From: Lachnoclostridium sp. Marseille-P6806
Lineage (GTDB): Bacteria > Bacillota > Clostridia > Lachnospirales > Lachnospiraceae
Length of the DNA: 64,000 bases
Reading direction: 5' to 3'
Assembly: GCF_900625025.1 (NCBI RefSeq)
Contig: NZ_LR130576.1
Span: forward strand, 186,001-250,000
Positions 13,950 to 63,716 of this stretch are shown piece by piece. Under the pieces are notes generated by a model that was not told where the DNA came from, did not search any database, and was given only the letters and a program-made list of their open reading frames with translations. Every line of letters begins with the position of its first letter. The first letter of the stretch is position 1. The position numbers and the translations under genes were made by a program.

Positions 13950-14668
13950 CCCCATGCCGAAGCGCTTCCTGCAAGGCACGCGCCGCAATCACCCTGCGCC
14001 CCGTATTCCGCGTAATATTCCGAAAGAGCCGCGCGGATCGTATCGTCCAGAAGCACCGCGCCGTCGATCTCCCTGCCATAGAGATAATCAACGACCTCCG
14101 ACATCGTGACGATGGCGTGCGACGCAAAGCCGTAGCGTTCCCGGATCTCCTCCAGCGCTCCCCTGTCCGTATGAAGTCCTTTCTCCTGCCGGTCGAGCGA
14201 GACCATAAGGCCGATGATGTCCACATCCGCCTGTGCCCAAATGATCGGAAGCGTCTCCTCCATCGACGCGCCCGAGGTGGTCACATCCTCGATGATCACC
14301 ACGCGGTCGCCGTCGTGGAGCTTGCTGCCAAGGAGTATCCCTTTGTCGCCGTGATCCTTGATCTCCTTGCGGTTCGCACAGTATTTGACGCTGCGGCCAT
14401 ACAGACGGTTGATGGCGATGGCCGTCGCCACCGCGAGCGGAATGCCCTTATAGGCCGGTCCGAACAGAACGTCGAAATCAAGACCGTAGGCATCATGGAT
14501 TGCTCTCGCATAAAACTCGCCGAGCCTTGCGAGCTGCCCGCCGTTCTGATACAGTCCCGCGTTCATGAAAAACGGAGATTTTCTTCCGCTCTTGAGCGTG
14601 AACTCGCCGAAGCGGAGAACATGACTGTCCACCATGAAATCAATAAACGACTTCTTATATTCTTCCAT
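13946..14668 (-). CDS. pyrE: Orotate phosphoribosyltransferase
   Basis: Transfers PRPP ribose-phosphate to orotate, giving OMP. 240 residues. The PRPP-binding signature VVIIEDVTTSGAS and FTLKSGRKSPFFMN are visible. The last 14 or so residues (DCGACLAGSASAWG) are encoded by a copy of the dispersed repeat that also precedes pyrE itself, so this tail was probably acquired by repeat insertion. Start at 14668 with GGAGG 5 nt upstream, again supplied by a repeat copy. Cotranscribed with pyrF, the next enzyme of the UMP pathway. Confidence 0.96.
   Translation of the reverse strand: MEEYKKSFIDFMVDSHVLRFGEFTLKSGRKSPFFMNAGLYQNGGQLARLGEFYARAIHDAYGLDFDVLFGPAYKGIPLAVATAIAINRLYGRSVKYCANRKEIKDHGDKGILLGSKLHDGDRVVIIEDVTTSGASMEETLPIIWAQADVDIIGLMVSLDRQEKGLHTDRGALEEIRERYGFASHAIVTMSEVVDYLYGREIDGAVLLDDTIRAALSEYYAEYGAQGDCGACLAGSASAWG
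13951..13997 (-). repeat. Dispersed start-site repeat copy overlapping the 3' end of pyrE
   Basis: Minus strand TTGCGGCGCGTGCCTTGC followed by GCGCTTCGGCATGGGGA; differs from the 14684-14824 copy at only a few positions in the shared cores. It encodes the PyrE C-terminal tail and supplies the GGGGA ahead of the DUF6142-like start. Confidence 0.7.
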
Positions 14669-14683
14669 TAATCCTCCATGCCG

Positions 14684-14824
14684 AAGCGTTACTCAGCGAG
14701 GCACGCGCCGCAAAATCCGCGCAGGCGGTTTTGCGGCTGCGATCAGGGCAATTTGGGCTTCGGCACAAATTGCCGTGTGCAAAGATCAGCGCATCAGCGT
14801 GATTTTTCACACTATCTCCCTGTC
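14684..14824 (-). repeat. Dispersed start-site repeat, longest copy, between pyrF and pyrE
   Basis: Fills the whole pyrF-pyrE gap. On the minus strand it begins GATAGTGTGAAAAATCACGC, contains TTGCGGCGCGTGCCTCGC, and ends GCTTCGGCATGGAGGA, which is the Shine-Dalgarno region of pyrE. Several internal inverted repeats (GCAATTTG/CAAATTGC, TTTTGCGG/CCGCAAAA) could fold in RNA. Related shorter copies lie upstream of at least five other genes in the window. Confidence 0.7.
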
Positions 14825-15793
14825 TCAGGACAGTCCCCCGCCGATCCCCACGCCGTGAAGATCGTCAATCATATCCTTTGTCGCCTGCCGGGCCGCCTCT
14901 GCAAAGCGCTCCGGGCCGTACTTACTATACCGCTCATTGGTATAGGCCGCAATAATGCCCCGGGACGAATTGATGATGGCACCCATGCCGTCCTCGTTGA
15001 AGAACGGCAGAAGATCCGCCGCCTTTCCGCCCTGCGCCCCGTAGCCGGGAACCAGAATGAACGTGTTCGGCATGAGCCGGCGGAGGATTTTCCCCTGCTC
15101 GGGGTAGGTCGCGCCGACCACCGCGCCGACATTGCTGTATCCGTCCTCCATGACCTCCGCGCCCCATTCCCTGACCTTTTCAGCCACCAGCTCATAGACC
15201 GTCCGGCCGTCCGCCGTCTTCACATCCTGAAACTCGCCGCTGCTGGGATTCGAGGTCTTGACCAGAACAAAGATGCCCTTGTCATACTCCCGGCAGACAT
15301 CGACAAAGGGCTTCACGCCGTCCGAGCCGAGATACGGATTCACCGTCGCAAAATCCTCGTCGAAGACGCGGACGCCGCGCCCGTTTATGACCGTGCGTCC
15401 CAGATGAGCCCTTGCGTAGGCCGCCGACGTGGAGCCGATGTCGCCCCGCTTCACATCGCCAATTACGATAAGGCCTTTTTCCTGACAGTAGCGGACCGTC
15501 CGCCAGAACGTCTCCATCCCGGGAAGTCCGAACTGCTCATACATCGCGATCTGCGGTTTGACCGCCGGGACGAGATCGGCAATGCCGTCAATGATCTCCC
15601 GGTTGAAGCGCCACACCGCCTCCGCCGCCACTCTGAGCTCGTCCTCCGCCGCGTAGGGATCGCAGGCGTCTCCCGCCAGAGCGTGGGCGGCGTCCTGCAT
15701 AAGCTGCCGCGGAATGAATTTCATATCCGGATCAAGACCGACGACCACCGGCACTCCCGTCTCCCGAATGCGGCGAATCAGTTTCTGAATCAT
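14825..15793 (-). CDS. pyrF: Orotidine 5'-phosphate decarboxylase, type 2
   Basis: Decarboxylates OMP to UMP. 322 residues, matching the longer type-2 OMPDC rather than the 230-residue type 1. VVVGLDPDMKFIP at the N-terminus, the catalytic GDVKRGDIGSTSAAYA, and VGATYPEQG are visible. The start at 15793 has GGGAGGAAGCT directly upstream; in-frame extension to 16114 would overlap the TPR gene and is rejected. Followed by the long repeat and pyrE. Confidence 0.96.
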   Translation of the reverse strand: MIQKLIRRIRETGVPVVVGLDPDMKFIPRQLMQDAAHALAGDACDPYAAEDELRVAAEAVWRFNREIIDGIADLVPAVKPQIAMYEQFGLPGMETFWRTVRYCQEKGLIVIGDVKRGDIGSTSAAYARAHLGRTVINGRGVRVFDEDFATVNPYLGSDGVKPFVDVCREYDKGIFVLVKTSNPSSGEFQDVKTADGRTVYELVAEKVREWGAEVMEDGYSNVGAVVGATYPEQGKILRRLMPNTFILVPGYGAQGGKAADLLPFFNEDGMGAIINSSRGIIAAYTNERYSKYGPERFAEAARQATKDMIDDLHGVGIGGGLS

Positions 15794-15801
15794 AGCTTCC
15801 T

Positions 15802-15902
15802 CCCTGTATCGTTCTGTCCGCAGAAGCATCTGCCGTTCTCTGCGCAGAAGCGTCTGTCGGCCCGTAAAGCGTCTGTCATCTCGTCCGCAGAAACATCTGC
15901 TC
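15802..15902 (-). repeat. Degenerate short repeats at the TPR gene end and pyrF leader
   Basis: Four imperfect copies of a unit like CAGAYGCTTCTGCGGAC in about 100 bp; the first is the coding end of the TPR lipoprotein gene (QMFLRTR), the rest lie between its stop and the pyrF Shine-Dalgarno sequence. GCAGA-TGCT-TCTGC in the last copy could form a small hairpin. Confidence 0.55.
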
Positions 15903-16967
15903 CCTCTGCGCCTCCGCATCCTCCGGATAGGCCGCAAGATAACTCTGCATGAGTTCCGCCGCCCGGGTGAACTGCCCGAGCTTCTCGTAGGCCACGATCT
16001 CATTGAACAGAAGATCCTGCCGGACCGCGCTGTTCTCGATTTTCTGCCCCGTCTGGAACGCATCCAGCGCTTTCTCATTCGAGCCGAGCTGCAGATAGCA
16101 AAGCCCCAGCTCATTGTAAATCTCCGCGTGGGTCTGATCCGCCGCGAGATAGGCGGTATAGACGTCCGAGGCGTAATTCAGATCTCCCTGCGCGATGTAG
16201 GTCTTGCCCAGCATCAGCGTCACACGGTAATCCTTTCCGGCCTGCGCCTGTTCAAAGCAGGCCTTGGCCGTCTCGTAATCCTCCAGATAATAGGAGAGAC
16301 GCCCTTTGTCGTAGCCTCCCATATTGAGATTGGCCGAAATCGATTCCGACAGATAGCTCTTCCCCGCATCCTCGAAGCCGTACTGCTTCATGGTGGAATA
16401 CATGGAAATGATCCGATCATAATCCGTCGGAGCCCGCCGGATCGCCTCCCGGAAATCCGCGTCCGCCGCATCGAAATTTCCCTCGGTGATTTCCGTCGCG
16501 CCGCGCATCTCATAGGCATCCACGCTGTTCCTGTCCATGGCGAGAATGGCGTCATAGATCTCCATGGCCCGGTCGTACTCCCCCAGCTTGTAGTAGCAGG
16601 AAGCGAGATAGAAATTCATGTCGTAATCCATACTGTCCGGCAGTATTCCGCTCTTGTTCAGCGCTTTTTCAAGAGACTGCGCCGCCGCGGCATAATCGCC
16701 GGTTCCCATCTGCGCGATCCCCAGCGCCCGGTAGACAGCGCGTCCGTCCTCCCCTCCGGCCGCCGCCTCCTCGAGAAGCTCGCGTGCCTCCTCGAAATTG
16801 CGGCTGCCGATGAGCTCCATTCCGCTGCGCACCGCGCCGCTCTCACGAAAGCGGAGCCCGCAGCCGCCAATGAGCGGGACAGACAGCGCGGCAAGCAGAA
16901 CGCAGACGCCTCTGCGCCGGCGCGCTCCTCTCTTATTCCCCGCTGCATCATTCCGCCGATTCAACAT
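15876..16967 (-). CDS. TPR-repeat lipoprotein
   Basis: 363 residues. After a basic stretch (KRGARRRR) a hydrophobic segment ends in LIGGC, a plausible lipobox with Cys as the lipidated residue, so the protein should be anchored on the outer face of the membrane. The rest is at least six tetratricopeptide repeats (for example FYLASCYYKLGEYDRAMEIYDAIL, written here in part, and YNELGLCYLQLGSNEKAL). Such proteins scaffold protein assemblies; the partner is unknown. Start 16967 is preferred over 16979 because in other repeat copies the ATG within GCATGGGG is not used. Two tandem copies of the TTCGGCATGG repeat core precede it. Confidence 0.8.
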   Translation of the reverse strand: MLNRRNDAAGNKRGARRRRGVCVLLAALSVPLIGGCGLRFRESGAVRSGMELIGSRNFEEARELLEEAAAGGEDGRAVYRALGIAQMGTGDYAAAAQSLEKALNKSGILPDSMDYDMNFYLASCYYKLGEYDRAMEIYDAILAMDRNSVDAYEMRGATEITEGNFDAADADFREAIRRAPTDYDRIISMYSTMKQYGFEDAGKSYLSESISANLNMGGYDKGRLSYYLEDYETAKACFEQAQAGKDYRVTLMLGKTYIAQGDLNYASDVYTAYLAADQTHAEIYNELGLCYLQLGSNEKALDAFQTGQKIENSAVRQDLLFNEIVAYEKLGQFTRAAELMQSYLAAYPEDAEAQREQMFLRTR

Positions 16968-17049
16968 ACCGATTCCCATGCCGAAGTCCCCATGCCGAAG
17001 CGCTTTTTGCCTGTTGAAAGCCTCAGCGCATCCGCGTGATTTTTCACAC
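16968..17049 (-). repeat. Dispersed start-site repeat upstream of the TPR lipoprotein
   Basis: Minus strand begins GATAGTGTGAAAAATCACGC, as in the pyrF-pyrE copy, continues GATGCGCTGA, and ends with GCTTCGGCATGGGGA and a second TTCGGCATGGGA. The doubled core gives two ribosome-binding-like sequences ahead of the start. Confidence 0.65.
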
Positions 17050-17630
17050 TATCAGCCTCCGTTTTTCTGAACGCCCGCTCTCTGCTCCCTGTCCGGAAGC
17101 TGCCGCAAGAACAATCGCGGCAAACATCAAAAAGCAGCCGCCGATCTCGCGCGGGCTCAGCCGCTGCCCAAACAGAACCCAGCCTGCCAGAACGGAGATC
17201 ACCGGGAAAAGGCCTGTCAGCAGATCTTTCGCCGACGGCTTCTCAAGCAGCAGGCAGAGCACCGGCACAAGAACAATATACAATGCCGTAATGAAGCCGC
17301 TCTTTCCCACATCCGTATGGATCAGCGCAATCTGCTGGAGGATGGAGGCCGCACTCAGAAGCGAGCCGCAGACCGCGCCGCCAAGCAGCGTTTCCCGGCG
17401 GTCGTATGAAAAGACCCTACATCTCCCTGTGCCTTTCGCTGCACGCGGAAATGCCGCCGGACAAGCACAAGCGGCGCCAGCACGGCGACCGCAAAAACGC
17501 TCCTTGCCGTCTGAAAGGTGATCGGCCCCATATAGCGGTTCCCGACGCTCTGCGCGACAAAGGCCGTCCCCCAGATAAACGCGCAGAGAAAGAGAAGAAA
17601 CGCCTTGCCCGGCTCGATTCTCCGCCTCAA
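17044..17630 (-). pseudogene. EamA/DMT-family transporter, decayed (frameshift plus internal deletion)
   Basis: Two frames carry pieces of one drug/metabolite transporter of about 300 residues. The 5' piece (17355-17630, start TTG) has the family N-terminus (FLCAFIWGTAFVAQSVGNRYMGP) through the second membrane helix. The 3' piece (17044 to about 17400) runs VGKSGFITALYIVLVPVL and then jumps from LLLEKPSAKD straight to ISVLAGWVLFGQRLSPREI, the last helices. So there is at least one frameshift near 17420 and an internal deletion of roughly 130 codons near 17225. The TTG overlaps the ridA stop, showing the intact ancestor was cotranscribed with ridA. Not expected to be functional. Confidence 0.82.
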
Positions 17631-18031
17631 AGGAGACAGCAGATCACTTCGACCTCACAGAGGACGTCCTTCGGGATCTGCTTCACCGCAACACAGCTTC
17701 TCGCCGGTTTCCCTGTGAAATATTTCCCATATACCTCATTGAACGCGGCAAAATCATTCATGTCCGAAAGGAAGCAGGTCGTCTTGACCACCTGTCCGTA
17801 ATCGGCGCCCGCTTTTTTGAGGATTTTCCCGATGTTCTCCATGACCTGCTCCGCCTGCTCGGTGATGCCTCCTTCTACGACCTCCCCCGTCGCCGGATCG
17901 ATCGGAATCTGACCGGAGCAGAACAGATAGCCGCCGGCGGCGACCGCCTGCGAATACGGACCGATGGCAGCCGGCGCTTTCTTTGTGGAAATTACTTTCA
18001 CCTTTTTCGCTTCTTTGTGCTCTTTGCTCAT
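17627..18031 (-). CDS. ridA: RidA-family reactive enamine/imine deaminase
   Basis: Hydrolyses 2-aminoacrylate and related reactive enamines released by PLP enzymes, in the cytoplasm. 134 residues, family length. GPYSQAV, FCSGQIPIDPATG and the active-site Arg in PARSCVAV are visible. The start at 18031 (MSKEHK) fits the family; GGAAAGG lies upstream. The stop overlaps the start of the EamA pseudogene by 4 nt. Confidence 0.93.
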   Translation of the reverse strand: MSKEHKEAKKVKVISTKKAPAAIGPYSQAVAAGGYLFCSGQIPIDPATGEVVEGGITEQAEQVMENIGKILKKAGADYGQVVKTTCFLSDMNDFAAFNEVYGKYFTGKPARSCVAVKQIPKDVLCEVEVICCLL

Positions 18032-18171
18032 CGTGACACCTTTCCGGAAGCCTCTGCTCCCTGTTCCCACCGCATCCCCCTCGGTATTCCCTATCGGACA
18101 GAATAACAGAAAATCAGCGGAATGCGAACACCTGCCGGCACATATTCTGAAAAACCCGATGCGCGGCGACG

Positions 18172-18402
18172 CTACTCCTCGAAACGGGCCGTCACGTAAA
18201 AGCCCTGTTCGTTCTCCTCAATCCGCACGACGACGCCCTCGCGCGACTCCAACCGCTGATTGAACGGATAATTTCCGCTCATCGCGCGGGAGGGGTCGAT
18301 CGTATAGTAGTAATTGCTGGGGAGAAGCCCCTCCGACACGGTAACGGTCTCTCCCTCATGGAGAAGTCCCTCCCTCTCCATTTTAAATTCCATCTCTCGC
18401 AT
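18172..18402 (-). CDS. Small conserved-looking protein overlapping the SGNH hydrolase gene
   Basis: About 76 residues, not recognised. The frame overlaps the 3' end of the SGNH hydrolase gene by roughly 20 nt, typical of real coupled genes. It is acidic with a well-formed sequence (LLPSNYYYTIDPSRAMSGNY, then alternating hydrophobic/charged residues ending VTARFEE), suggesting a small beta-rich domain. The start is uncertain: 18402, 18393 and 18381 are all possible. It may act with the SGNH/MBOAT pair, but nothing in it shows how. Confidence 0.55.
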   Translation of the reverse strand: MREMEFKMEREGLLHEGETVTVSEGLLPSNYYYTIDPSRAMSGNYPFNQRLESREGVVVRIEENEQGFYVTARFEE

Positions 18403-19852
18403 CGCTCTGCTTCCATCCCGCCGGCTCACAGGCCGCCGGCGCTTCCTCCCAAAGGCCGGGAGCCTCTCCCGTATCATCAAGCTCCTCCGCCCGGATTACC
18501 GCATTGTCCATGAGAAACTGGCGCCAGAGAAGATAGCGGGACGCCTTGAGGTGAACCCCGTCCGCGGAATATTCCGCCGGGAGATCGCCATTCTCATCGC
18601 AGAATACGGAGTTCATATCAATATAGAAAATATCCCGGCCGTTGGCAAGCGACGCGATCGCCGCGTTGCGCTCGGTGATGGCGGTATTGTTGTACACCGG
18701 ATCGGACGCGCTCCTCGCACGGGTGACATGCATGATACCCTGTATATACAGAATCGCGTCGGGCTGCAGGGCCCGGATCAGCTCCAGCGCCTCCCGGTAC
18801 TTCTGATAGAAGCCCGCCGTCGCCGGAACGCCGAGCTCATTGATGCCCACCGAGAGATATATCTTGTGGAAATGACGGGCCGTCAGCAGCTCCAGCAGCG
18901 TCTCCTCGCTCCTTGTCCCGTCAGCGCTCCTGACCGCGGCCCGCTGCGACCAGAGGCGGTAGACCGAGAGCGCGTCTTTCGCAAAAAAGGTGGTCAGCTT
19001 CTCCATATCGCCGTATTCCGCAAGGCCGTCCGTCCGGGAATCCCCGATGAACAGCGCATCCGAAAAGTAGCTCTCCGGCACGCTCTGCAGGCGGTAATAA
19101 TTCCCGTCCGGCGCAAAGATTCCCTCCGTCTCGCCCGGGTACTCCGTCCCCGGGGGGTCAAGATAACGGGCTGAGGCCGCTCCGTAATCCGCCGCGTCCA
19201 TCACGGCGCTGTTCACCCCCTCCGGCTCCGCCGCGGCAGACACATACGAGGCATTTTCCGTTCTCGCCGCCGCGATCATCGTCCCAGCCTCCTCCTCCGC
19301 CCGTTGCATGGCCGGCGTGATGACGACCGAAATGCCGCCTATCTTTGCCGTGACGGCCTGCGGCTCTTCCGCCTGCGCGGTCCCCTCTCCCTCCGGGGAG
19401 TCCGCGTTCATGTTGTCCGCCTCGGCTTCCGAAGCTCCCGCGGCCTCCTCCGAAGAGGCTCCGCTCTCCGGGCCGCTGCCGTCCGAGCTGCTGTTGTCCC
19501 ATGCGCCGTCTGCCGGAGAAGCCGCTTCGCCAGCGTTCCCGGCGGGCGACTCGACCGCCGTTTCCTCCGCGCCTTTGCCTGCCGCCTCCGATGCAGAGGC
19601 CTGCGCATCCTCCCCTCCGGCTTTCGCGGCCTCTCCGCGCCGCTCTGCCAGCTCCCACGGGAAGACACCCTCGCGCAGCCCCTGAAATACAAGAGAAAGA
19701 TACGGCTGTCTCAGAGGATCGAACATGCTGTCGTCATAGAGCCGCCCTCTGCCGGCGGCTCCGAGCGCCGAGGCGGAGAGCGTCGTGATCATCAGTGTTG
19801 TGAAAAGGGGCATTGCGCGAAGCCCGCGGAATACATCGGATATACGTCTCAA
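18383..19852 (-). CDS. SGNH/GDSL-family hydrolase or O-acetyl transferase partner, membrane-anchored
   Basis: 489 residues. An N-terminal membrane segment (about residues 14-33) places the rest outside. Residues 70-180 are Ala/Glu/Ser/Gly-rich low-complexity linker. The C-terminal half is an SGNH domain: block I LFIGDSRTDGL with nucleophile Ser272, block III-like SVGINELG, and SADGVHLKA with Asp431 and His434 completing the triad. The MBOAT gene 18 nt upstream strongly suggests a cell-surface O-acylation system like AlgI/AlgJ/AlgX or PatA/PatB, in which the SGNH protein transfers the acyl group to an external glycan. The substrate is unknown. Confidence 0.82.
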   Translation of the reverse strand: MRRISDVFRGLRAMPLFTTLMITTLSASALGAAGRGRLYDDSMFDPLRQPYLSLVFQGLREGVFPWELAERRGEAAKAGGEDAQASASEAAGKGAEETAVESPAGNAGEAASPADGAWDNSSSDGSGPESGASSEEAAGASEAEADNMNADSPEGEGTAQAEEPQAVTAKIGGISVVITPAMQRAEEEAGTMIAAARTENASYVSAAAEPEGVNSAVMDAADYGAASARYLDPPGTEYPGETEGIFAPDGNYYRLQSVPESYFSDALFIGDSRTDGLAEYGDMEKLTTFFAKDALSVYRLWSQRAAVRSADGTRSEETLLELLTARHFHKIYLSVGINELGVPATAGFYQKYREALELIRALQPDAILYIQGIMHVTRARSASDPVYNNTAITERNAAIASLANGRDIFYIDMNSVFCDENGDLPAEYSADGVHLKASRYLLWRQFLMDNAVIRAEELDDTGEAPGLWEEAPAACEPAGWKQSDARDGI

Positions 19853-19870
19853 TGCGTCTTTGTCTCCCTG

Positions 19871-21259: not shown

Positions 21260-21279
21260 GCCATAACCTCAATGCCTCA

Positions 21280-23148: not shown

Positions 23149-23152
23149 GGCC

Positions 23153-24779: not shown

Positions 24780-24796
24780 GCCCGTTCACACCCGCC

Positions 24797-29605: not shown

Positions 29606-29611
29606 CATTCC

Positions 29612-29660
29612 TCCATGCCGAAGCAATTTGCGCGAGGCGCGCACCGCAAAAGCGCGCTAA
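29612..29660 (-). repeat. Dispersed start-site repeat upstream of an ABC transporter gene
   Basis: Minus strand TTTTGCGGTGCGCGCCTCGC then GCTTCGGCATGGAGGA, ending at the start codon. Aligns with the copies before pyrE, mtnA and the DUF6142-like gene. Confidence 0.7.
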
Positions 29661-29688
29661 GATGCGGGGCGCCCTGCGTCTCATGCCG

Positions 29689-31446
29689 TCACAGCGCCTG
29701 TGCCGCCGGCGCAGCCTCTCCGCGCACCCTCCACTCGTTGGCCCGCATAAACTCTTCCTGAAGCCGGCGATAGCGGGTGTCGCCCCGCATCAGCTCGCCG
29801 TGGCTTCCGCGCTCCGCCACTCTTCCGTTTTCGATCACCAGAATCTCGTCGACATTCCGGATCGAGCTGAGCCGGTGCGCGATCATAATGACGGTCCTGC
29901 CCTTCATGAGATTGGCGAGCGCCCTTTGCAGCTCATACTCGTTCTCCGGATCCGCCGCCGCCGAGGCCTCGTCCAGAATGACGATTCCCGCGTTTTTCAG
30001 AATCGCGCGGGCAATCGTGATGCGCTGCATTTCCCCGCCGGAGAGATGCACGCCCTCGGAGCCGATCACCGTCTCCTCTCTCCCGGCAAATTTGCCGAGA
30101 ATTTCATCGCACTGCGCAAGATGCAGCGCCTCCATGACCTCCTCCCGGGAGGCGCTCCTCCGCCCGGCTCTCACATTTTCATAGATCGTGTCCTGAAACA
30201 GCCTCGCATCCTGAAACACGTTCGCGATGTTCCGGGCAAACGCGCCGTCCGAATACTCGCTCAGGGCGCGGCCGCCGATCCGTATCTCGCCCCCGTCCGT
30301 CTGATAAAAGCCCGAAATCAGCTTTGCCAGCGTGGTTTTTCCCGAGCCGGACGAGCCGACCAGCGCGTAGCTTCGTCCCGCGGGGAGCGTGAGGGACAGG
30401 TTCTCGATCACGCGTTCCTCTCCGTAGCTGAACGTCACATCCCGAAATTCGATGTCGAAGCTGTCCATCTTCTCCGCTGTGCCGCGGGGCAACTTTTTCT
30501 CCTCCATCTCACGAAACAGCGTCTCGATCTTTCCGATCGCGGAATTTGCCTGAAAGAGATACATCCCCACATACATGACTTTCATGAATGAAATGAAAAG
30601 TATCCCGTGGAACATGACATAAAACATAAACTTCGCGAGAAACTCCCGAGGCTCCCCGTTCCGCACGGAATAGAAAAACATGGCGGTAAGATACACCGCG
30701 TTAAAAAACACCTGAAACACCACATACCACCGGCGGCAGCTCATGCTGTAACGCAGCGCCAGATCGGAGTAGGCGAGCACGGCTCTGTGAAATTCCCGAA
30801 GAGACTCCGCGTTCATCCGGAAGATCTTGAGCACATGGATGCCGCGCACATACTCGACCGCTCCGGCATTCATGGTTTCCTGCGCCTCCATATACCGCTT
30901 CATAAACTGACGGTCGCCCATCATCCGCTGAATGAAATACAGCCCCAGCAGCAGGGTGACAAGGAACAGGACGCCGAGCTTTACGTCGACCGCAAAGGCG
31001 AGCGCCGCGCCGAGGACAGGCACAAACACCGCCGTGGAGAGATCCGGAATCAGGTGCGCCACACTCATATGGGTCAGCACGGTGTTGTCGTCGATGATCT
31101 TCCGGATTCTTCCCGAATCATTCCGGTCGTAGAAGCTGAACGAGGCCTGCATCAGCCTCCGTATCCCCAGCTTCTTGAGATTGGTTTCCAGACGGAACCC
31201 CAGAGCGTGCGTCGCCCAAAGCGATAAAAAATAGACCGCCGTATTCGCCACGAGCAGCGCGGCGATACGGAATGCCGCGGGCACGGCTCCCCGGATATCA
31301 CCGTCCGCAATGATCTTCACCAGAAAACGATAGAGCATGTAATAGCTTGCGATCGAAAGAAGAGCCGCCAGAAACGCCAGCACAATCCCGATCGCGGCAA
31401 AAGCAAGTCTCTCCGGCGCGTATTCCTTTAATTTCCGATAGATCAC
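29689..31446 (-). CDS. ABC transporter, fused permease/ATPase half (YbtP/YbtQ-like), second of pair
   Basis: 585 residues with six predicted membrane segments and an ATPase domain: Walker A GSSGSGKTT, signature LSGGEMQR, Walker B IVILDEASAAADPENE. Partner of the preceding half-transporter. It follows the MptD-type S component by 26 nt. Alternative roles (lipid or peptide export) cannot be excluded from the fold alone; the ECF context and the iron-box-like operator favour metal-chelate import. Confidence 0.87.
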   Translation of the reverse strand: MIYRKLKEYAPERLAFAAIGIVLAFLAALLSIASYYMLYRFLVKIIADGDIRGAVPAAFRIAALLVANTAVYFLSLWATHALGFRLETNLKKLGIRRLMQASFSFYDRNDSGRIRKIIDDNTVLTHMSVAHLIPDLSTAVFVPVLGAALAFAVDVKLGVLFLVTLLLGLYFIQRMMGDRQFMKRYMEAQETMNAGAVEYVRGIHVLKIFRMNAESLREFHRAVLAYSDLALRYSMSCRRWYVVFQVFFNAVYLTAMFFYSVRNGEPREFLAKFMFYVMFHGILFISFMKVMYVGMYLFQANSAIGKIETLFREMEEKKLPRGTAEKMDSFDIEFRDVTFSYGEERVIENLSLTLPAGRSYALVGSSGSGKTTLAKLISGFYQTDGGEIRIGGRALSEYSDGAFARNIANVFQDARLFQDTIYENVRAGRRSASREEVMEALHLAQCDEILGKFAGREETVIGSEGVHLSGGEMQRITIARAILKNAGIVILDEASAAADPENEYELQRALANLMKGRTVIMIAHRLSSIRNVDEILVIENGRVAERGSHGELMRGDTRYRRLQEEFMRANEWRVRGEAAPAAQAL

Positions 31447-53363: not shown

Positions 53364-53469
53364 CTTCTCCGACACACAGAGCGCATCTTAACGAGCGGCT
53401 TTTCACCGCGCCGCGCATCCGCACATGCACAGCGCACCGCCCGGCAGACAGCCTCTGCGCGTCAGATAA

Positions 53470-53576
53470 ACAGCTTCCTTACGCCGGTATTATCCGGTTC
53501 AAGTAATGAGGGTCGCGGCCGCCGGCACATCCCGGATGCCCTTAAAAGCCGCGTCTCAGCATTTGCTCCCCTAGCA
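53470..53576 (-). promoter_or_regulatory. TPP riboswitch controlling thiM-thiE-thiW-thiD-cytX
   Basis: Minus strand shows the thi-box core in order: CTAGGGGAGC, GCTGAGA, then ACCCTCATTACTTGAACC, GGATAATACCGGCGTAAGG. With the downstream terminator this gives transcription-off control by thiamine pyrophosphate. It accounts for most of the 434-bp gap 53269-53702. Confidence 0.95.
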
Positions 53577-53593
53577 CGATATTCTTTTTGAAT

Positions 53594-54965: not shown

Positions 54966-55023
54966 CCGGTTCTTTCACGGCAGTACTTTCACCGCAAGAT
55001 TTCTTTTGAATATCAATCCGGGG

Positions 55024-55029: not shown

Positions 55030-55035
55030 TCAGAA

Positions 55036-55917: not shown

Positions 55918-55952
55918 TCTTACAACAACATTCTCACGGAGATTCCTGCTTT

Positions 55953-56738: not shown

Positions 56739-56783
56739 TCGGGAACTTCCCCTCTCTGCTCCCCGCCTGCATCAATACAATTC

Positions 56784-57794
56784 TTATATCTCGCCTACGG
56801 TTTTTCCCTCGTAGACCGAGCCTTTCACAATAATCTGGCGGGTCAGCGTCGTCCGCGGGCGCTCGATCTGCAAAATCAGCTCCCGCGCGGCCTCCATTCC
56901 CATTCTTTCGGCATCCTGCCGAATCGTCGTGAGCTGCGGCTCTATATGACGCGCGATACGGATGCCGTCATATCCCGCGACGGAAATATCCTCCGGGATC
57001 GACAGCCCGCGCTCCTTGATCGCATTGATTCCTCCAAAGGCCGAAAAATCATCCGGATACAGAATACAGGTCGGCGGCTGCGGAAGATCCAGAAGCTCCT
57101 CCGTCTGCCGCGCCGTCTCATCCGTATTGCGGTACGGCGCCTCGCGGATATATTCATCCGGGATCTCAAGTCCCAGCTCGTCCGCCGTTTTGAAAAAGCT
57201 GGAGACACGCCCCTGCGTAACCGAGGAATCCAGCCCATGGATGAACGAGATCCTGCGGTGCCCCTTCCCGTAGACATAGCTGAGCAGGTCGCGCATACCG
57301 CCGACATTATCGGACAGAATCGCCGTGCGGTTGTTGAACATGTGGTCGATCGTCACGACCGGAATATCGCTGCGCACCAGCTCCAGAACCTCCGGATCGT
57401 AAAAATTTACGCAGGCGATGCAGACCCCGTCAAAGCCCCGGTATCTCGCGTGCGCCAGATACGACATGCGGTTGGAGCGGGTCTTGTTTCCGTTGATAAA
57501 GGTAATGTCATAGCCCATAGACTCTGCTTTTCGCTTGAAACTGTCGAGAATATAGGCAAAGAAATCATGCGTCAGACCATTCTGCGCCTCATCGACGAAG
57601 AGCATGCCGATGTTGTAGGTCCGGTTTGTCTTGAGCGCCTTGGCTGCGGAATTGGGATAATAACCGAGCTCCGCCGCCACCTCTTTGATATGTGCTTTCG
57701 TCTCCGCACTGATGTCGTTGTGATTATTAAGTGCCTTGCTGACCGTTGCGATGGAAACACCGCAGGCAGCAGAAATATCTTTCAGTGATACCAT
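56784..57794 (-). CDS. LacI-family transcriptional regulator
   Basis: 336 residues: N-terminal LacI HTH ([22 protein letters not shown] with hinge helix SAAKAL) and a periplasmic-binding-like sugar domain ([10 protein letters not shown]... to ...[10 protein letters not shown]). Divergent from the cellobiose phosphorylase gene across a 471-bp region with LacI-type sites, so it is probably the local regulator for that gene and itself; the effector may be cellobiose or a breakdown product. Confidence 0.93.
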
Positions 57795-57861
57795 ACTTCC
57801 CCCGTTCTATTTCTCCTGCATGCCGCGCCGGCTTCTTTTCCGTCCGGCTTCTTAACATTAA

Positions 57862-57932
57862 ATTATAGCCTCCCTGCGCCTTTCGCACCATGGGTTACGG
57901 CAATTCCGGCTTTTCTTAATCGTTTTCGTTAA
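57862..57932 (-). promoter_or_regulatory. lacI-type promoter region with upstream operator
   Basis: TATAAT (57867-57862) and, upstream, an imperfect palindrome TTAACGAAAACGATTAA (57932-57916) of the LacI-operator kind with CG at the centre of each half. Likely autoregulation. Confidence 0.5.
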
Positions 57933-58113
57933 AAGAATACCTCCTGACAACAGAAAAAGCAAGCCGCCTCTCTCCGCACCCCGCCGCTCCGGCGTCTCCT
58001 TTCATAAAAAGCGCCCGACCCGCCTCTCCTGCAAGTGCCGCATATTAGGGCGTTTTCCTCTCTTTCTCCGTCCCCGTGCAAAGAGCTGTACAAAAGAAGA
58101 CAAAAGTTTCGTG

Positions 58114-58143
58114 TTGCTTTTTGGAATATGCCGAGTATATAAT
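58114..58143 (+). promoter_or_regulatory. Promoter of the cellobiose phosphorylase gene
   Basis: TTGCTT, 18-bp spacer, TATAAT. Confidence 0.65.
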
Positions 58144-58171
58144 GAACTTCGTACAGGACCGCGCCGGAGCT

Positions 58172-58181
58172 TAAACGTTTA
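58172..58181 (+). promoter_or_regulatory. LacI-type operator downstream of the cellobiose phosphorylase start site
   Basis: Perfect palindrome TAAACGTTTA with the central CG of LacI-family sites, about 20 bp after the predicted transcription start. Binding here would block elongation or initiation. The rest of the 471-bp gap shows nothing else definite. Confidence 0.6.
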
Positions 58182-58265
58182 CAATACGTTCGTCCGCGCT
58201 TCCCGCCCACAAAAAGACCCCCTCCGCCATGATCGGACGGATGCAAAAAGGAGAGCAGGCACACT

Positions 58266-60716
58266 ATGAAATTCGGCTATTTTGACGACAAAAACCGGGA
58301 GTACGTGATCACCACCCCGCAGACGCCCCTGCCGTGGATCAATTACCTTGGCAATCAGGACTTTTTCAGCCTGATCTCCAACACGATGGGCGGCTATTCT
58401 TTCTACAAGGACGCAAAGCTCCTGCGTCTTACGCGCTACCGCTACAACAGCGTGCCCTATGATAATAATGGAAAATATTTCTTCATTCAGGACGGCGATA
58501 CGCTCTGGAATCCGGGCTGGCAGCCGACCCGGACCGAGCTGGACCGCTACGAGTGCCGCCACGGTCTCGGGTACAGCCGCTTTCTCGGCGTCAAAAACGA
58601 TATCGAGGCCTCGGTTCTCAGCTTTGTTCCGCTCGGCGACAACTGTCAGATCGACCATGTGAAGCTCACCAATCTCTCGGGCGCACCGAAGTCCATCCGA
58701 CTTTATTCCTATGTGGAATGGTGCCTCTGGAACGCCTCCGACGACTGCGAGAATTTCCAGCGCAACCTCTCCACCGGTGAGGTCGAGGTCGAGGGCTCCG
58801 CGATTTTTCATAAAACGGAATACCGCGAGCGGAGAAACCACTATGCCGTCCGCTCCGTCAACGCCGCGATCGACGGCTTTGATACCATACGTTCCGCATT
58901 CATCGGAACCTACAACGGTCCCGATGCGCCCGAGGCGATTCTCCGCGGCGGCTGCACCAATTCCATGGCGAGCGGCTGGTCCCCGATCGCCGCACAGCAG
59001 CTCGACATCCGTCTTTCCCCCGGCGAAACAAGATCCCTTGTCTTTGTTCTGGGATATATCGAAAACCCGGAAAGCGAGAAATGGGCGGATGGCACACAGC
59101 CCCGCGACGGCATCATCAACAAGACCCGCGCATACGCCATGCTGGACCGCTACCGAACGGACGGGCAGGCCGAGGCCGCCTTTGCGGAGCTCCGCGCATA
59201 CTGGAGCGGGCTCCTCGCCCGCTACACGCTCCGCTGCGGGGACGACAAGGTCAGCCGCATGGTCAACATCTGGAATCCGTATCAGTGCATGATCACATTC
59301 AACATGAGCCGCTCCGCCTCCTACTATGAATCCGGCATCGGGCGCGGCATGGGCTTCCGCGATTCCTGTCAGGATCTGCTCGGCTTTGTCCACCTCATCC
59401 CGGGACGCGCAAGGGAACGAATCATCGACATCGCCTCGACACAGTTCCCGGACGGCTCGGCCTATCATCAGTATCAGCCGCTCACAAAGAAAGGCAATGC
59501 CGGCATCGGCTCCGGCTTCAACGACGATCCGCTCTGGCTCATTGCGGCGGTCTCCGCATACACGCGCGAAACAGGCGATTACTCCATCCTCGACGAGACG
59601 GTGCCCTACGACGGCGATATGTCCATCGCCACCTCTCTGATGGAGCATCTGCGCCGCTCCCTTGATTTCACCATCAGCCACAAGGGGCCGCACGGTCTCC
59701 CGCTCATCGGGCGCGCCGACTGGAACGACTGCCTGAATCTCAACTGCTTCTCCGAGCATCCCGGGGAATCGTTTCAGACGTTCGGCCCGTCGGAGGGTCC
59801 GGTGGCGGAATCTGTCTTTATCGGCGGCATGTTCGTCAAGTACACGGAGGAATACGCAGAGCTCTGCGAGCTGCGCGGCGCTGCCGCAGAGGCCTCGAGA
59901 GCGCGGAGCGAGCGCGAAGCCATGTACCGCGCCGTCTGTTCCGCGGGCTGGGACGGCGAATGGTTTCTGCGGGCCTACGACGCGTACGGAAACAAGGTCG
60001 GCTCCCATGAGTGCGAGGACGGTCAGATCTTCATCGAGCCGCAGGGCTTCTGCGTTCTTGCCGGCTGCGGTGTGAAAGAGGGTTTTGCGGACAGAGCGCT
60101 CCGCTCCGTCGAAAAACAGCTCGATACGAAGTACGGCATCTGCATCCTCGCGCCGGCCTATAAGCGATATCACCTCGAGCTCGGCGAAATCAGCTCCTAT
60201 CCCCCGGGATATAAGGAAAACGGCGGCATTTTCTGCCACAACAACCCGTGGGTCTCGATCGCGGAGACGGTCTGCGGACACGGCGACCGTGCGTTCGAAA
60301 TTTACCGGAAGACCTGTCCCGCCTACACGGAGGATATTTCAGAGATTCACCGCACGGAGCCCTATGTCTACTGTCAGATGGTCGCCGGCCGCGAAGCGAA
60401 ATATTTCGGAGAGGGCAAGAACAGCTGGCTGACAGGAACCGCCGCATGGACGTTCACGGATATCTCCCAGTATATTCTGGGGATTCAGCCCACGCATACG
60501 GGCCTCCGGATCGATCCCTGCGTGCCCCACGGCTTCGGCAGCTTCCAGATCGACCGCCGCTTCCGGGATGCTGTATATCACATCGAGGTCACGAACCCGG
60601 ACGATGTCGAAAAGGGCGTGCGGTCAATGACGGTCGACGGGCAGGCCGTCGCGGGCTGTACGGTTCCCCTTGTCCCGGGAAAGAAAGAATATCAGGTCCG
60701 TGTCGTGATGGGCTGA
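58266..60716 (+). CDS. Cellobiose phosphorylase (GH94)
   Basis: Splits cellobiose with phosphate to glucose 1-phosphate and glucose in the cytoplasm, saving one ATP. 816 residues, family length. Starts [36 protein letters not shown] carries the general acid Asp488; [23 protein letters not shown] and TGTAAWTF form the phosphate and sugar sites. The ADWNDCLN segment matches cellobiose rather than chitobiose or cellodextrin enzymes best, as far as memory allows. AAAGGAG lies 13 nt upstream. Followed by a bidirectional terminator. Confidence 0.93.
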
Positions 60717-60783
60717 GTCCGCGCTTTCTCATCCGTCCGGCGGCCTTTCACCAGCCTGCAAAAAGAAAAAGAATGAAAAGAAG

Positions 60784-60842
60784 AAGGATGACATCCCGTA
60801 TACTGCCCATATAAGGCAATATGCAGGATGTCATCCTTTTTT
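60784..60842. terminator. Bidirectional terminator between cellobiose phosphorylase and nth
   Basis: Arms AAGGATGACATCC / GGATGTCATCCTT with a loop of about 29 nt and T-runs on both sides. Confidence 0.85.
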
Positions 60843-61599
60843 ATTCGAGCGCCGCGGCCTGCTTTCCATAGCGGCAGATCTCTTTCAGACAGCATTCTCC
60901 GCAGCGGGGATGCCGTGCGACACAGACCGCCCGCCCGTGATTCACGAAGCGATGGCAGAGATCCGAGCCCTCCTCCGGCGGTATGATCTTCCAGAGCTCT
61001 CTCTCAACCTTTGCCGGCTCTTTCAGATCGTCGACAAGACCGATGAGATTGCACAGGCGGATACAGTGCGTATCCGTCACGATCGCCGGCTTGCCGAACA
61101 CATCGCCCATGACAAGATTAGCGCTCTTGCGCCCCACGCCGGGGAGGGCAAGGAGCGCGTCAAAATCATCCGGAACCCGGTCTGCATACTTCTCATGCAG
61201 CACCTTCATGCAGGCCGAGATATCTCTCGCCTTGCTGTGTCCGAGCCCGCATACCTTTACGATCTCCTCGATTTCCTCCACCGGCGCCTCCGCGAGGGCC
61301 TCCACGGTCGGAAATTTTTCATACAGGATCGGAACGGTCTTGTCCACGCGGGCATCGGTGCACTGCGCGGCGAGCCGCACGCTCACGAGGAGCTTCCACG
61401 GCTCATCGTACCAGAGCGTGCACTGCGCATCCGGATACTCCTCGCGCAGGCGCCTGATCACCTCAATCGCCAGCGCGCGTTTCTTTTCCAGATCCTTTTC
61501 CGCTGTCCCGACCGGCTTCTTCTTTAATTTCGTTTCGGATGTCTTTCCGGATCGCTTCCCAAGCTGTCTTTCCGGCTGTTTTTCAGATTGCTTTTTCAT
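60841..61599 (-). CDS. nth: Endonuclease III
   Basis: Base-excision-repair glycosylase/AP lyase for oxidised pyrimidines. 252 residues, with a basic N-terminal extension of about 40 residues (KKQSEKQPERQLGKRS...). HhH motif LPGVGRKSANLVMG with catalytic Lys, catalytic Asp in VTDTHCIRL, and the iron-sulfur loop C-x6-C-x2-C-x5-C at the end (CVARHPRCGECCLKEIC) are present. Confidence 0.96.
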   Translation of the reverse strand: MKKQSEKQPERQLGKRSGKTSETKLKKKPVGTAEKDLEKKRALAIEVIRRLREEYPDAQCTLWYDEPWKLLVSVRLAAQCTDARVDKTVPILYEKFPTVEALAEAPVEEIEEIVKVCGLGHSKARDISACMKVLHEKYADRVPDDFDALLALPGVGRKSANLVMGDVFGKPAIVTDTHCIRLCNLIGLVDDLKEPAKVERELWKIIPPEEGSDLCHRFVNHGRAVCVARHPRCGECCLKEICRYGKQAAALE

Positions 61600-61712
61600 C
61601 AGGGCCGTTCCTCTCCGCTCTGTCTCTTTCGCAACTACAACAAAATGAGCGCGTCACCGCCGAATACCGCATTTCTGCGAATCCCGACAGTGCCCACGCT
61701 CATCCGTTCACC

Positions 61713-61786
61713 TGTGCGTGACATGATTCGAACACGCGACCTTCTGGTCCGTAGCCAGACGCTCTATCCAGCTGAGCTACACGCAC
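61713..61786 (-). tRNA. tRNA-Arg (anticodon ACG)
   Basis: 74-nt cloverleaf on the minus strand: acceptor GTGCGTG/CACGCAC, D arm TAGCTCAGCTGGATAGA, anticodon stem TCTGG/CCAGA with loop CTACGGA (ACG), T arm GGTTCGAATC-like (GTGTTCGAATCATG), discriminator A. CCA is not encoded. ATGAGCG.../...CGCTCAT followed by TTTTG at about 61643-61703 could end its transcript before nth. Confidence 0.93.
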
Positions 61787-61821
61787 ATTTCGTATGCCTT
61801 TCAATATCGGCAACAAAATGT

Positions 61822-61850
61822 ATATTACACGCTCCCAGCCGGTTTGTCAA
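61822..61850 (-). promoter_or_regulatory. tRNA-Arg promoter
   Basis: Minus strand TTGACA (61850-61845), 17-bp spacer, TAATAT (61827-61822). Confidence 0.75.
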
Positions 61851-61877
61851 TCCCGTTTTTTCCGTTTTCCGGACGGC

Positions 61878-62533
61878 TTATTCACGTTCCACCAGCGCCG
61901 CGCAGCCCACCGGATGTCCCAGCGCGATGGCGCCGCCGTTGACATTGAGAATATCCCTGTTGAAGCCGAGCTCCCGGGCCACCGCCACGGACTGCGCCGC
62001 AAAGGCTTCATTGGCCTCGATGAGATCGAGCTCCCCGACGCTCCACCCGGTCTTCGCGCAGACCTTTTTCGTCGCGGCAACCGGACCGATTCCCATGATG
62101 CTGGGCTCCACGCCCGCAAGCTCCCCGCCGATCCACGTCGCCATCGGCACGACGCCGGGCTTTTTCGCCTTTTCCTCACTCATGACGACCATGGCAGCCG
62201 CCGCGTCATTGATTCCGGAGCTGTTCCCCGCCGTGACCACGCCGGTTCCGTCTTTCTTAAAGGCCGGCTTCAGCTTCGCCAACGCCTCCGTCGTCGTGCC
62301 GAAGCGCGCGCCCTCATCTGTATCAAACACGACCTCCTGCTTTTTCTGCTTCAGGCTCACTAAGGGGACATGGACATGTTTTCCATTCCGCCCGCCACAA
62401 TAATATCCGCATCGCCCATGGCGATCAGCTTCGCCGCAAGGTTGACACAGTGCAGACCGGAGCCGCACAGTACATTGATGGTCGTCGCCGGAACCCCGAC
62501 CGGAATTCCCGCGTTCACCACCAACTGCCGCGC
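61878..62533 (-). pseudogene. Acetyl-CoA acetyltransferase (thiolase), decayed by multiple deletions
   Basis: Pieces of a thiolase of about 390 residues lie in two frames. The first (62533-62360) covers [13 protein letters not shown] to [15 protein letters not shown] (active-site Cys) and [10 protein letters not shown], then stops. The second frame resumes at [21 protein letters not shown] and runs to [14 protein letters not shown], then ends abruptly in CAALVERE, the C-terminal residues. So roughly 65 residues at the N-terminus, 105 in the middle (with frame change) and 35 near the C-terminus are missing, including the second catalytic Cys. It abuts mtnA with a 4-bp gap. Non-functional. Confidence 0.88.
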
Positions 62534-62537
62534 CCGC

Positions 62538-63671
62538 TTATTCCTTTTCCGACGCTTTTTTCTCAAAAATATCGCGGAGGGACTCCGTATAGGGCGCCCG
62601 AGCCACGCCGTATTCTGTGACGATTCCGCTGATGAGATCGCTCTCCGTGACATCAAACGCCGGATTATACACCTGTATTCCCTCCGGCGCCATGCGCTCC
62701 GCATACCACATCTCCGTCACCTCCTCCGGCTTTCGCTGCTCAATCGGAATCTGATCGCCGGAGGAAAGAGACATATCAATGGTCGAGGTTGGCGCACAGA
62801 CATAGAAAGGCACACCATAGCGCTTCGCCGCCAGCGCAAGAAGACTGGTTCCGATCTTGTTCGCCGCATCGCCGTTTGCCGCCACGCGGTCGCAGCCCAC
62901 AAAGACTGCCTGCACCTTGCCGCTCTTCATGAGCGAGGCCGACATATTATCGCATTCCAGAGTGACATCCATGCCGGCCGCCGCCAGCTCGTATGCGGTC
63001 AGACGCGCTCCCTGCAAAAGAGGACGTGTTTCATCACAGTAAATATGAAAGCCGTATCCTCTCTCATGCCCCAGATACATCGGCGCCGTCGCCGTGCCGT
63101 AGCGGATCGTGGCAAGCCGCCCCGCATTGCAGTGCGTCAGGAGTCCGTCCCCCGGACCTACAAGCGACAGACCGTATTCACCGATGCTGCGGCAGACGCG
63201 GATATCCTCTTCCCGGATCTCCTCCGCCTCGCACCCCAGCACCGAAAGAGCCTTTTCGACCGTCATGCCCTGCTCCTCCTTAAGAGACATCAGCACGCAC
63301 TCCATCCGGCAGAGCGCCCACGAGAGGTTGACCGCCGTGGGCCGCGAGCTCTCCAGATATACTTTCTGCTTCCGAAATTCCCGGGAGAGCGCCTCAAAAT
63401 TGACTGCATAGTTCTCTACCGTGTCTTTCTCCGGGAGCTGCGCTTTTTTCGCCAACAGATAAATTCCCAACGCCGCTGTGACGCCGATTGCCGGAGCCCC
63501 CCGCACCTGCAGCAAATAGATTGCCTCCCAGATTTCCTCCGCCGTACGAAGACGGATAAGGCGCAGCTCACCGGGAAGCTTTGTCTGGTCTATGATCAAC
63601 AGCGCATCTTCCTCCTTAAGGAGAGACACCGTATCGCAGTCCAGTATCGTCTTTGATTTGTCCATATTCAT
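62538..63671 (-). CDS. mtnA: S-methyl-5-thioribose-1-phosphate isomerase
   Basis: Isomerises methylthioribose 1-phosphate to methylthioribulose 1-phosphate in the methionine salvage pathway; eIF2B-alpha-like fold. 377 residues. [30 protein letters not shown] (catalytic Cys) and [19 protein letters not shown] (catalytic Asp) are visible. Start 63671 has TGGAG 6 nt upstream within a repeat copy; the longer start at 63713 lies in the repeat. Other salvage genes are not in the window. Confidence 0.93.
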
Positions 63672-63675
63672 AAAA

Positions 63676-63716
63676 ATCTCCATTTCGAAGCACGTTGTGC
63701 GAGGCGCGCGCAAAGA
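63676..63716 (-). repeat. Dispersed start-site repeat upstream of mtnA
   Basis: Minus strand CTTTGCGCGCGCCTCGC then GTGCTTCGAAATGGAGA; more diverged than other copies (CGAA for CGGC) but same layout and distance to the start codon. Confidence 0.6.

What the first reader, a model, noticed from the sequence alone, without database searches (positions are those of the whole stretch)
13951..63716. Dispersed repeat family placed directly before start codons and carrying the ribosome-binding site
At least six copies (purE about 13503-13530, DUF6142-like 13951-13997, pyrE 14684-14824, TPR lipoprotein 16968-17049, ABC half-transporter 29612-29660, mtnA 63676-63716) share TTGCGGYGCGYGCCTCGC followed by GCTTCGGCATGGAGGA, always on the coding strand of, and ending at, the next gene's start. 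The GGAGG core is the Shine-Dalgarno site. This looks like a mobile or copied 5'-leader cassette rather than a neutral intergenic repeat: it moves translation signals with it. I know no described element with this property.
Basis: partly seen in the sequence, partly recalled or inferred. Interest (0 to 1): 0.72.

Follow-up and report, generated by a model that had tools for sequence, protein, structure and literature searches.

The report
Mobile repeat replacing ribosome-binding sites
A small folded repeat has spread to more than a hundred places in this bacterium's genome and to many related species, lying in the few bases between a gene's ribosome-binding site and its start codon and bringing its own ribosome-binding site, so that the gene it lands in can probably still be translated.

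Summary
The repeat is real and far larger than the six copies reported. The core GCTTCGGCATGG occurs 96 times in the 3.13-Mb genome (reversed control 0); three searches pooled give about 150 unvetted sites. The full element is ~140 nt: three hairpins, then a tail just before a Shine-Dalgarno (SD) site. The tail can pair with the loop of hairpin 2 or form a fourth hairpin; covariation over 82 copies is strong.

Copies lie between two SDs: an older one to the left (64 of 72 5'-anchored copies; 84 of 214 control windows) and their own to the right, 6-10 nt before an ATG (40 of 72; random 113 of 4000). Sister genomes show uninterrupted SD-spacer-ATG at three loci; 17 congener pyrE loci lack it. 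Model matches occur in 43 of 62 genomes of the genus, patchily, and 7 of 146 sampled across the order, own included. A sister subfamily has the fold without SD or start.

Best reading: a non-autonomous mobile element inserting into the SD-start spacer with a replacement SD. Mover unknown. Not found in Rfam or nine literature searches. Effects on translation are inferred.

The parts
14672..14813 (-). full-length element before pyrE
   Evidence: R1 covariance model 140 bits, E 3.1e-35, positions 1-140 of 140 (the copy is one of the 25 the model was built from)
14814..14823 (-). older (native) SD-like sequence ACAGGGAGAT left of the element; resembles ACAGGGAG before the pyrE ATG in congener locus L183
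14757..14764 (-). loop of hairpin 2, GCCGAAGC, partner of the tail (pseudoknot)
   Evidence: sequence; covariation
14680..14687 (-). tail GCTTCGGC, pairs with the hairpin-2 loop or with the hairpin-4 5' strand
14673..14677 (-). element-borne SD GGAGG
13946..14668 (-). pyrE-like gene (phosphoribosyltransferase), downstream gene
   Evidence: PF00156
13948..13997 (-). shortened copy (3' half) before the DUF6142 gene; it overlaps the end of the pyrE frame
   Evidence: (E 0.034)
13510..13560 (-). decayed copy before purE: GGTTCGGTATGGAGG tail preceded by what looks like remnants of the insert carried by the long subfamilies
   Evidence: resemblance to rows judged by eye; no model match
16990..17049 (-). 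internally deleted copy before the TPR-protein gene: hairpin 1 joined to the tail; the tail is followed by a second CTTCGGCATGG
29609..29735 (-). degenerate copy before the ABC-transporter gene (start 29608)
   Evidence: (E 2.6e-5)
63676..63716 (-). degenerate 3' half before the mtnA-like gene (start 63671)
   Evidence: E 0.0065; PF01008

Best explanation
A family of ~140-nt non-autonomous mobile elements. Each folds, as single-stranded DNA or as RNA, into three hairpins, and its 3' tail pairs either with the loop of hairpin 2 or in a fourth hairpin. It integrates on the coding strand a few bases 3' of an SD sequence, that is in the SD-to-start-codon spacer, without a detectable target duplication, and its 3' end carries an SD (TGGAGGAT, TGGTGAT and the like) at working distance from the start codon. 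The old SD is left stranded upstream and the element's SD takes over, so insertion into an essential gene's initiation region can be survived. Shown: the repeat, its covarying structure, its place between two SDs, orientation, patchy spread, and uninterrupted sister sites. Inferred: that the element's SD is the one used, that target choice follows an SD-like purine motif, and that movement needs a factor in trans not yet identified.
For: Copy number: 96 exact 12-mers, control 0; 72 hairpin-1 sites with up to 3 mismatches, control 0; 106 model hits at E <= 0.01 with 150 of 2519 candidates scored; pooled 153-161 sites, unvetted. Position, in the set anchored on hairpin 1 and so not chosen by its 3' end: left 15 nt hybridise to the anti-SD at <= -4.5 kcal/mol in 64 of 72 (84 of 214 windows further upstream; 61% of shuffled flanks); 61 of 72 have a tail (up to 3 mismatches within about 400 nt, so a few may be chance); 52 of 72 a start of an ORF >= 60 codons within 20 nt of it; 40 of 72 an ATG 6-10 nt after it (113 of 4000 random positions). 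Left flanks vary (4.4 bits over 12 nt), right ends, aligned by the model, are more uniform (9.3 bits; 45 copies), so the right SD belongs to the element. Uninterrupted sites: G021 TCACGGAGGTAAA-[element]-GGAAACCATG vs G035 TCACGGAGGTAAAACTAATACCATG; G114 vs G043 at two genes; no model match in those three sister loci. 17 pyrE and 12 lepA loci of congeners have no model match, while G000 has copies before both genes. Structure: H1-H3 96.4% of 2852 cells paired, 34 of 37 pairs with double changes, covariation 0.536 vs 0.155 shuffled and <= 0.080 slid; pseudoknot 0.231 vs 0.148 shuffled and <= 0.123 slid; H4 0.346 vs 0.158 shuffled and <= 0.138 slid. Spread: 43 of 62 genomes of the genus, own included, 0 to >= 50 copies; 7 of 146 of the order, own included, in two families. 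Unrelated downstream genes. Tandem copies (L003, L018, L035, L212).
Against: No transposase, recombinase or autonomous copy identified; Y1 transposase absent from the own genome. No TSD: left/right common substring 3.98 vs 3.89 with shuffled partners. Sister genomes are diverged, so exact boundaries are uncertain; of eight sister pairs compared, three were read as uninterrupted, one (G003/G013) has a shortened copy, one (L211) shares the copy, one (L212) was the same locus, and two were not resolved. For the pseudoknot and hairpin 4 the number of pairs with double changes does not exceed shuffles (3 vs 2.5; 6 vs 5.2), only cells and score do. A sister subfamily (17 of the 68 non-G000 rows, sorted after seeing them) lacks the SD and start context. 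The competing tail pairings beside the SD could mean regulation. No expression data.
Confidence: 0.72

Rival explanations
1. A cis-regulatory RNA (riboswitch- or protein-binding-like) that switches the downstream SD by alternating between the pseudoknot and hairpin 4, duplicated to many genes as a regulon.
For: Two covarying, mutually exclusive pairings of the tail immediately upstream of the SD; 49 of 82 copies can form both well; sense orientation before starts.
Against: Downstream genes share no evident pathway; copy number runs from 0 to >= 50 within the genus; 65 of 96 12-mer copies lack hairpin 1 yet keep the tail; a subfamily with the fold is not at starts; no Rfam family reaches its cut-off over the element. 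G-T cells are not favoured over other non-Watson-Crick cells (48 of 154 in H1-H3), which argues mildly against pairing that acts as RNA.
Confidence: 0.13
2. A retroelement: an RNA copied back into DNA in trans by the genome's reverse transcriptase, with the target chosen near SDs.
For: One RVT_1 match in the own genome, 480-codon frame; many 5'-shortened copies with a constant 3' end (65 of 96 lack hairpin 1; the set is anchored on the 3' end); one-way orientation; no TSD.
Against: 5' loss with 3' retention is also what selection for the SD predicts; the reverse transcriptase gene was not fetched or linked to the element; no intron or ribozyme match in Rfam; G-T cells not enriched.
Confidence: 0.15
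3. An ordinary extragenic palindromic repeat with no target preference; only copies that happened to leave an SD before a start survived.
For: Extragenic repeats are common in bacteria (recalled); the SD-less sister subfamily lies away from starts.
Against: Insertions upstream of SDs or between convergent genes should survive too, yet in the 5'-anchored set 64 of 72 have an SD on the left and sister sites place the element inside the spacer.
Confidence: 0.1
4. The element is mainly a small translated leader ORF (GTG AAA AAT ...) coupled to the downstream gene.
For: A GTG lies at start-codon distance from the left SD; that frame is open in 19 of 25 aligned copies while the other two forward frames are open in 0 and 1.
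Against: Closed after six codons in all 7 G114 rows, early in G021 and G066, and in many G000 copies with single-base indels; frame relative to the gene is not fixed.
Confidence: 0.03

Closest known systems
MITEs and small mobile intergenic repeats (ERIC, CIR; passages in PMC2229807 and PMC10969869; RUP, BOX recalled)
   Same: Short, hairpin-forming, dispersed, without own transposase; ERIC acts through RNA conformation in mRNA (PMC2229807, passage)
   Different: No terminal inverted repeats or TSD seen here; lies in the SD-start spacer; carries a replacement SD. The passages returned for 'ribosom', 'start codon' and 'Shine' in those two reviews mention no such element
Rickettsia palindromic elements (passage in PMC10969869; otherwise recalled)
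   Same: Palindromic repeat with a way of being tolerated inside an expressed gene
   Different: RPEs are read through in frame inside proteins; this one lies before the start codon and replaces the SD
TAACTGA repeats of Beggiatoaceae (PMC4679880; abstract and section 13 read)
   Same: Genome-wide repeats placed within a few nt upstream of start codons of unrelated genes
   Different: 7-nt direct repeats with little SD character; canonical SDs are rare beside them
REP/BIME with RAYT (Y1) transposases and IS200/IS605 elements (recalled)
   Same: Hairpins plus base pairing between an internal segment and the element end, oriented insertion 3' of a short motif, no TSD
   Different: No Y1 transposase in the own genome; different target
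Bacterial group I/II introns and IStrons near initiation regions (recalled)
   Same: Structured elements that limit damage to the host gene
   Different: ~140 nt, no intron family match in Rfam; no splicing needed because an SD is supplied

Membership tests
MITE | terminal inverted repeats | tested here: not met
   Ends read AGTGTGAAAA... and ...GGCATGGAGGA, not inverted copies of each other (by eye)
MITE | target-site duplication | tested here: not met
   Left/right similarity equals shuffled partners, 41 copies (159 of 500 shuffles at least as high); no clear duplication at the uninterrupted sites
MITE | ends shared with an autonomous IS in the genome | tested here: inconclusive
   Among the 102 held model hits and 72 hairpin-1 sites none was seen to flank a long ORF (by eye); about 0.41 of 3.13 Mb was read
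REP/BIME-RAYT or IS200/IS605 derivative | Y1 transposase (PF01797) in the genome | tested here: not met
   0 matches in own genome (96.7% complete), 5 of 14 control genomes ring; relatives not searched
Group II intron derivative | recognisable intron RNA domains | tested here: not met
   No Rfam intron match in the window at gathering or in 20 loci at E <= 1
Group II intron derivative | reverse transcriptase available | tested here: inconclusive
   One RVT_1 match in own genome, not fetched or typed
Riboswitch or other cis-regulatory RNA | covarying structure next to the expression signal | tested here: met
Riboswitch or other cis-regulatory RNA | association with a coherent set of genes | tested here: not met
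   29 downstream frames printed from the first 34 hits (read by eye), 10 proteins scanned: no common pathway
Known Rfam family | match at or above the curated score | tested here: not met
   None over the element at gathering in the window; in 20 loci only sub-threshold overlaps: AS-pc01 twice in L034 (31.5 and 29.1 of 79 bits) and istR on the other strand in L217 (26.9 of 45)

The most novel reading that the evidence does not exclude
A new class of mobile element whose integration site is the translation initiation region itself: it recognises SD sequences, inserts between SD and start codon, and has evolved a replacement SD so that it can colonise essential genes genome-wide, mobilised by an unknown machinery that reads its folded single strand through loop-to-end pairing.
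Probability: 0.5. Interest if true: 0.92.

Novelty: new variant of a known kind. Interest (0 to 1): 0.82.

Why it matters
Most mobile DNA must avoid genes or destroy them. An element that targets the SD-start spacer and brings its own SD could occupy genes such as those for aspartate carbamoyltransferase, LepA, a Clp ATPase or YlxR at little cost, and would rewrite the initiation region of dozens of genes at once, differently in each sister species. It offers natural before/after pairs for studying how SD, spacing and leader structure set translation, and poses a clear question about what machinery targets SD sequences.

Tried and rejected
Small leader ORF as the purpose: the GTG frame is open in 19 of 25 first-aligned copies but closed in all 7 G114 rows and others, so it is not a shared feature. 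Group II intron end (AGTGTG resembles the recalled GUGYG start): other clades start AGAGTG, AGATTG or AGTTCG, so dropped. Independent second element nested inside the first: the ~90-nt inserts sit at two fixed positions (in hairpin 1 and in hairpin 3) in the rows I read among 38 pattern matches, a few of which are chance, so they look like subfamilies. Operon interiors as a preferred place: 31 of 52 copies have a same-strand open stretch of >= 100 codons ending within 150 nt upstream, but the opposite-strand control gives 23 of 52, so I make no claim. Y1 transposase as mover: absent. Phage or plasmid carriage: no match for the window copy in phages or plasmids, for the L111 copy in phages, or for the L234 copy in plasmids, and no exact match of five patterns in viral contigs. 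The 14 genome contigs matches are single hits in Pseudomonas and others, taken as chance and not inspected; records near the window's genome may be left out of that collection. Literature: nine searches listed no paper that I recognised as describing SD-spacer insertion; searches returned no paper; the paper on 224 candidate RNAs (recalled, looked up by DOI) is not held.

Dropped rows and caveats: 4 of 106 model hits were not held for and, though fetched, were not put through that table; genus counts and order counts are capped at 52 and 22 scored candidates per genome; the split into SD-bearing and SD-less subfamilies was made after seeing the contexts; the start-codon scripts stop at the first start codon of an open frame, so ATG counts are slightly low; the left/right information figures were first made with a GG filter on the right end (4.5 and 9.9 bits) and are given without it (4.4 and 9.3).
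Full report
What was claimed and what is there. The six reported sites exist, all before minus-strand genes. The literal string is in only part of them, and only the pyrE copy (14672-14813) is full length. In the whole genome (G000, 38 contigs) the core GCTTCGGCATGG occurs 96 times and its reversed control 0 times. I fetched all 96 flanks (loci, window). Of the 96, 84 have a start codon of an open frame of at least 60 codons within 20 nt, and 63 have an ATG at 6-10 nt.

Anatomy. Aligning complete copies shows a ~140-nt unit: hairpin 1 (AGTGTGAAAAATCA...TGATTTTTCACAC), hairpin 2 (GGCTATTTG...CAAATAGCC) whose loop reads GCCGAAGC, hairpin 3 (GCCGCAAAA...TTTTGCGGC), then GTGCCTCGC-ACAAA-GTGCTTCGGCAT followed by GGAGGA or GGTGAT. 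The tail GCTTCGGC is the reverse complement of the hairpin-2 loop, and can instead close a fourth hairpin with GTGCCTCGC.

Structure is supported by covariation. On 25 copies, 95.8% of 1047 cells pair and 24 of 44 pairs show double changes; covariation 0.369 against 0.136 shuffled and at most 0.074 slid; the number of further pair types does not exceed shuffles (169 of 500 as high). On 82 copies from 28 genomes (14 rows from G000): hairpins 1-3 score 0.536 (shuffled 0.155, slid at most 0.080). The pseudoknot, which was not in the model used to make that alignment, scores 0.231 (shuffled 0.148, slid at most 0.123), with 37 double-change cells against 14.1 shuffled but only 3 pairs against 2.5. 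Hairpin 4, which was in the model and so leans in its favour, scores 0.346 (shuffled 0.158, slid at most 0.138), 79 cells against 27.9, 6 pairs against 5.2. 49 of 82 copies can form both tail pairings well. Non-Watson-Crick cells are G-T in 48 of 154 (hairpins 1-3), 28 of 89 (pseudoknot) and 30 of 126 (hairpin 4). By my reckoning about a third is what unselected mutation would give, so wobble is not favoured. This mildly points to folding as DNA rather than RNA; related copies are not independent, so it is a hint only.

Place. To avoid choosing copies by their 3' end I searched hairpin 1 with up to 3 mismatches: 72 sites, control 0. 61 of 72 have the 3' tail (up to 3 mismatches within about 400 nt); 52 of 72 lead into a start of an ORF of at least 60 codons within 20 nt; 40 of 72 have an ATG at 6-10 nt, against 113 of 4000 random positions. 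To the left, 64 of 72 flanks hybridise to the anti-SD at -4.5 kcal/mol or better, against 84 of 214 windows further upstream and 61% of shuffled flanks. Left flanks vary (4.4 bits over 12 nt), right ends are more uniform (9.3 bits; 45 copies), so the left SD is the gene's own and the right SD belongs to the element. Of the 11 sites without a recognisable tail, some still sit just before a start and others are degenerate. Internal deletions that join hairpin 1 to the tail keep the SD, and 65 of 96 12-mer copies lack a recognisable hairpin 1.

Interrupted and uninterrupted sites. Eight locus pairs were compared by blastn and four aligned. G021 has TCACGGAGGTAAA-[element]-GGAAACCATGCTTGAC where G035 has TCACGGAGGTAAAACTAATACCATGCTTGAC. 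G114 has the element inside the SD-start spacer of two genes where G043 has ACAGGAGGAGATTATG and AAAGGAGGACAACAATTATG. The model finds nothing in these three sister loci. In the fourth aligned pair G013 has a shortened copy with its SD (E 4e-5). Of the other four pairs, one shares the copy (L211/L251), one was the same locus (L212/L247) and two were not resolved. For pyrE and lepA, 17 and 12 congener loci show no model match, so at these two genes the element was most simply gained in the G000 line; in L183 the pyrE leader reads AACAGGGAGGACTGGGAG-ATG against ACAGGGAGATA-[element]-ATG in the window (other congeners are less alike there). No target duplication is apparent; boundaries are uncertain by a few bases.

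Spread. The exact 12-mer is abundant only in G000 among 61 genomes (others 0-6), but a 149-nt consensus finds relatives in 31 of 62 genomes of the genus and the covariance model in 43 of 62, with 0 to at least 50 copies (52 candidates scored per genome); both counts include the own genome. Across the order 7 of 146 genomes match, own included; the other six lie in two genera of the same family and two genera of another. Of 68 rows from other genomes in the 82-row alignment, 54 have a left SD and 42 an ATG 2-9 nt after the element; all 7 rows of G114 and all 9 of G203 have both. The 17 rows from G008, G010, G018, G027, G066 and G071 plus L217, L223 and L221 form an SD-poor group with the same fold, none with an ATG at 2-9 nt; this grouping was made after looking.

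Genes. Downstream genes are unrelated: carbamoyltransferase, phosphoribosyltransferase, AIR carboxylase, LepA-like GTPase, Clp ATPase, YlxR, ABC transporter, TPR protein, IF-2B family, DUF6142, and others by eye (29 frames). This argues against a metabolite-specific switch.

Mechanism. Best supported: a non-autonomous mobile element landing on the coding strand just 3' of SD-like sequences and supplying a new SD. The covarying loop-to-end pairing resembles how single-strand transposons read their ends (recalled for IS200/IS605), but no Y1 transposase was found in the own genome. One reverse transcriptase match is present and keeps an RNA route possible. Which machinery moves it is open.

Known? 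No Rfam family reaches its cut-off over it. Nine full-text searches listed no paper that I recognised as describing such an element; read in part: PMC4679880 (abstract and section 13), PMC2229807 and PMC10969869 (passages). Small mobile repeats are a known kind; SD-spacer insertion with a replacement SD appears to be new within what was searched.

Noticed in passing
G000 sites listed, e.g. C1:14837, C7:111681, C9:17044: Long subfamilies carry a ~90-nt extra hairpin segment (GGGACGGCATGAGMCGC...) at two fixed positions, within hairpin 1 or within hairpin 3; some copies (e.g. at C9:17044/17199 and C11:90952/91106) carry both.
   Followed up: partly
L214, L215, L217, L219, L222, L223, L225 (other species): Sister subfamily with the same fold but no SD at its end and not at starts, partly in tandem, often with GGAAGAGTG at the junctions.
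   Followed up: partly
window 13946-13997: The copy before the DUF6142 gene overlaps the end of pyrE, so the last ~15 residues of the PyrE reading frame (GDCGACLAGSASAWG) are written by the repeat.
   Followed up: no
window 53459-53582 minus strand: TPP riboswitch at 55.9 bits (gathering 54.3).
   Followed up: no
G114 contigs C1, C5, C6, C28, C29, C98, C134: Model hits begin at base 1-5 of seven contigs, as if near-identical copies broke the assembly; suggests recent activity in that species.
   Followed up: no
G000:C4:295370-295996 minus: Single RVT_1 reverse transcriptase match (480-codon frame) within about 2.6 kb of a contig end; candidate to test as mover.
   Followed up: no
G021/G035, region downstream of the L211 copy: The segment just downstream of the L211 copy matches some 35 further places in G021 and G035, a separate repeat family.
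   Followed up: no
L211 1419-1586 minus: Clostridiales-1 RNA (RF01699) at 113 bits beside a copy of the element.
   Followed up: no
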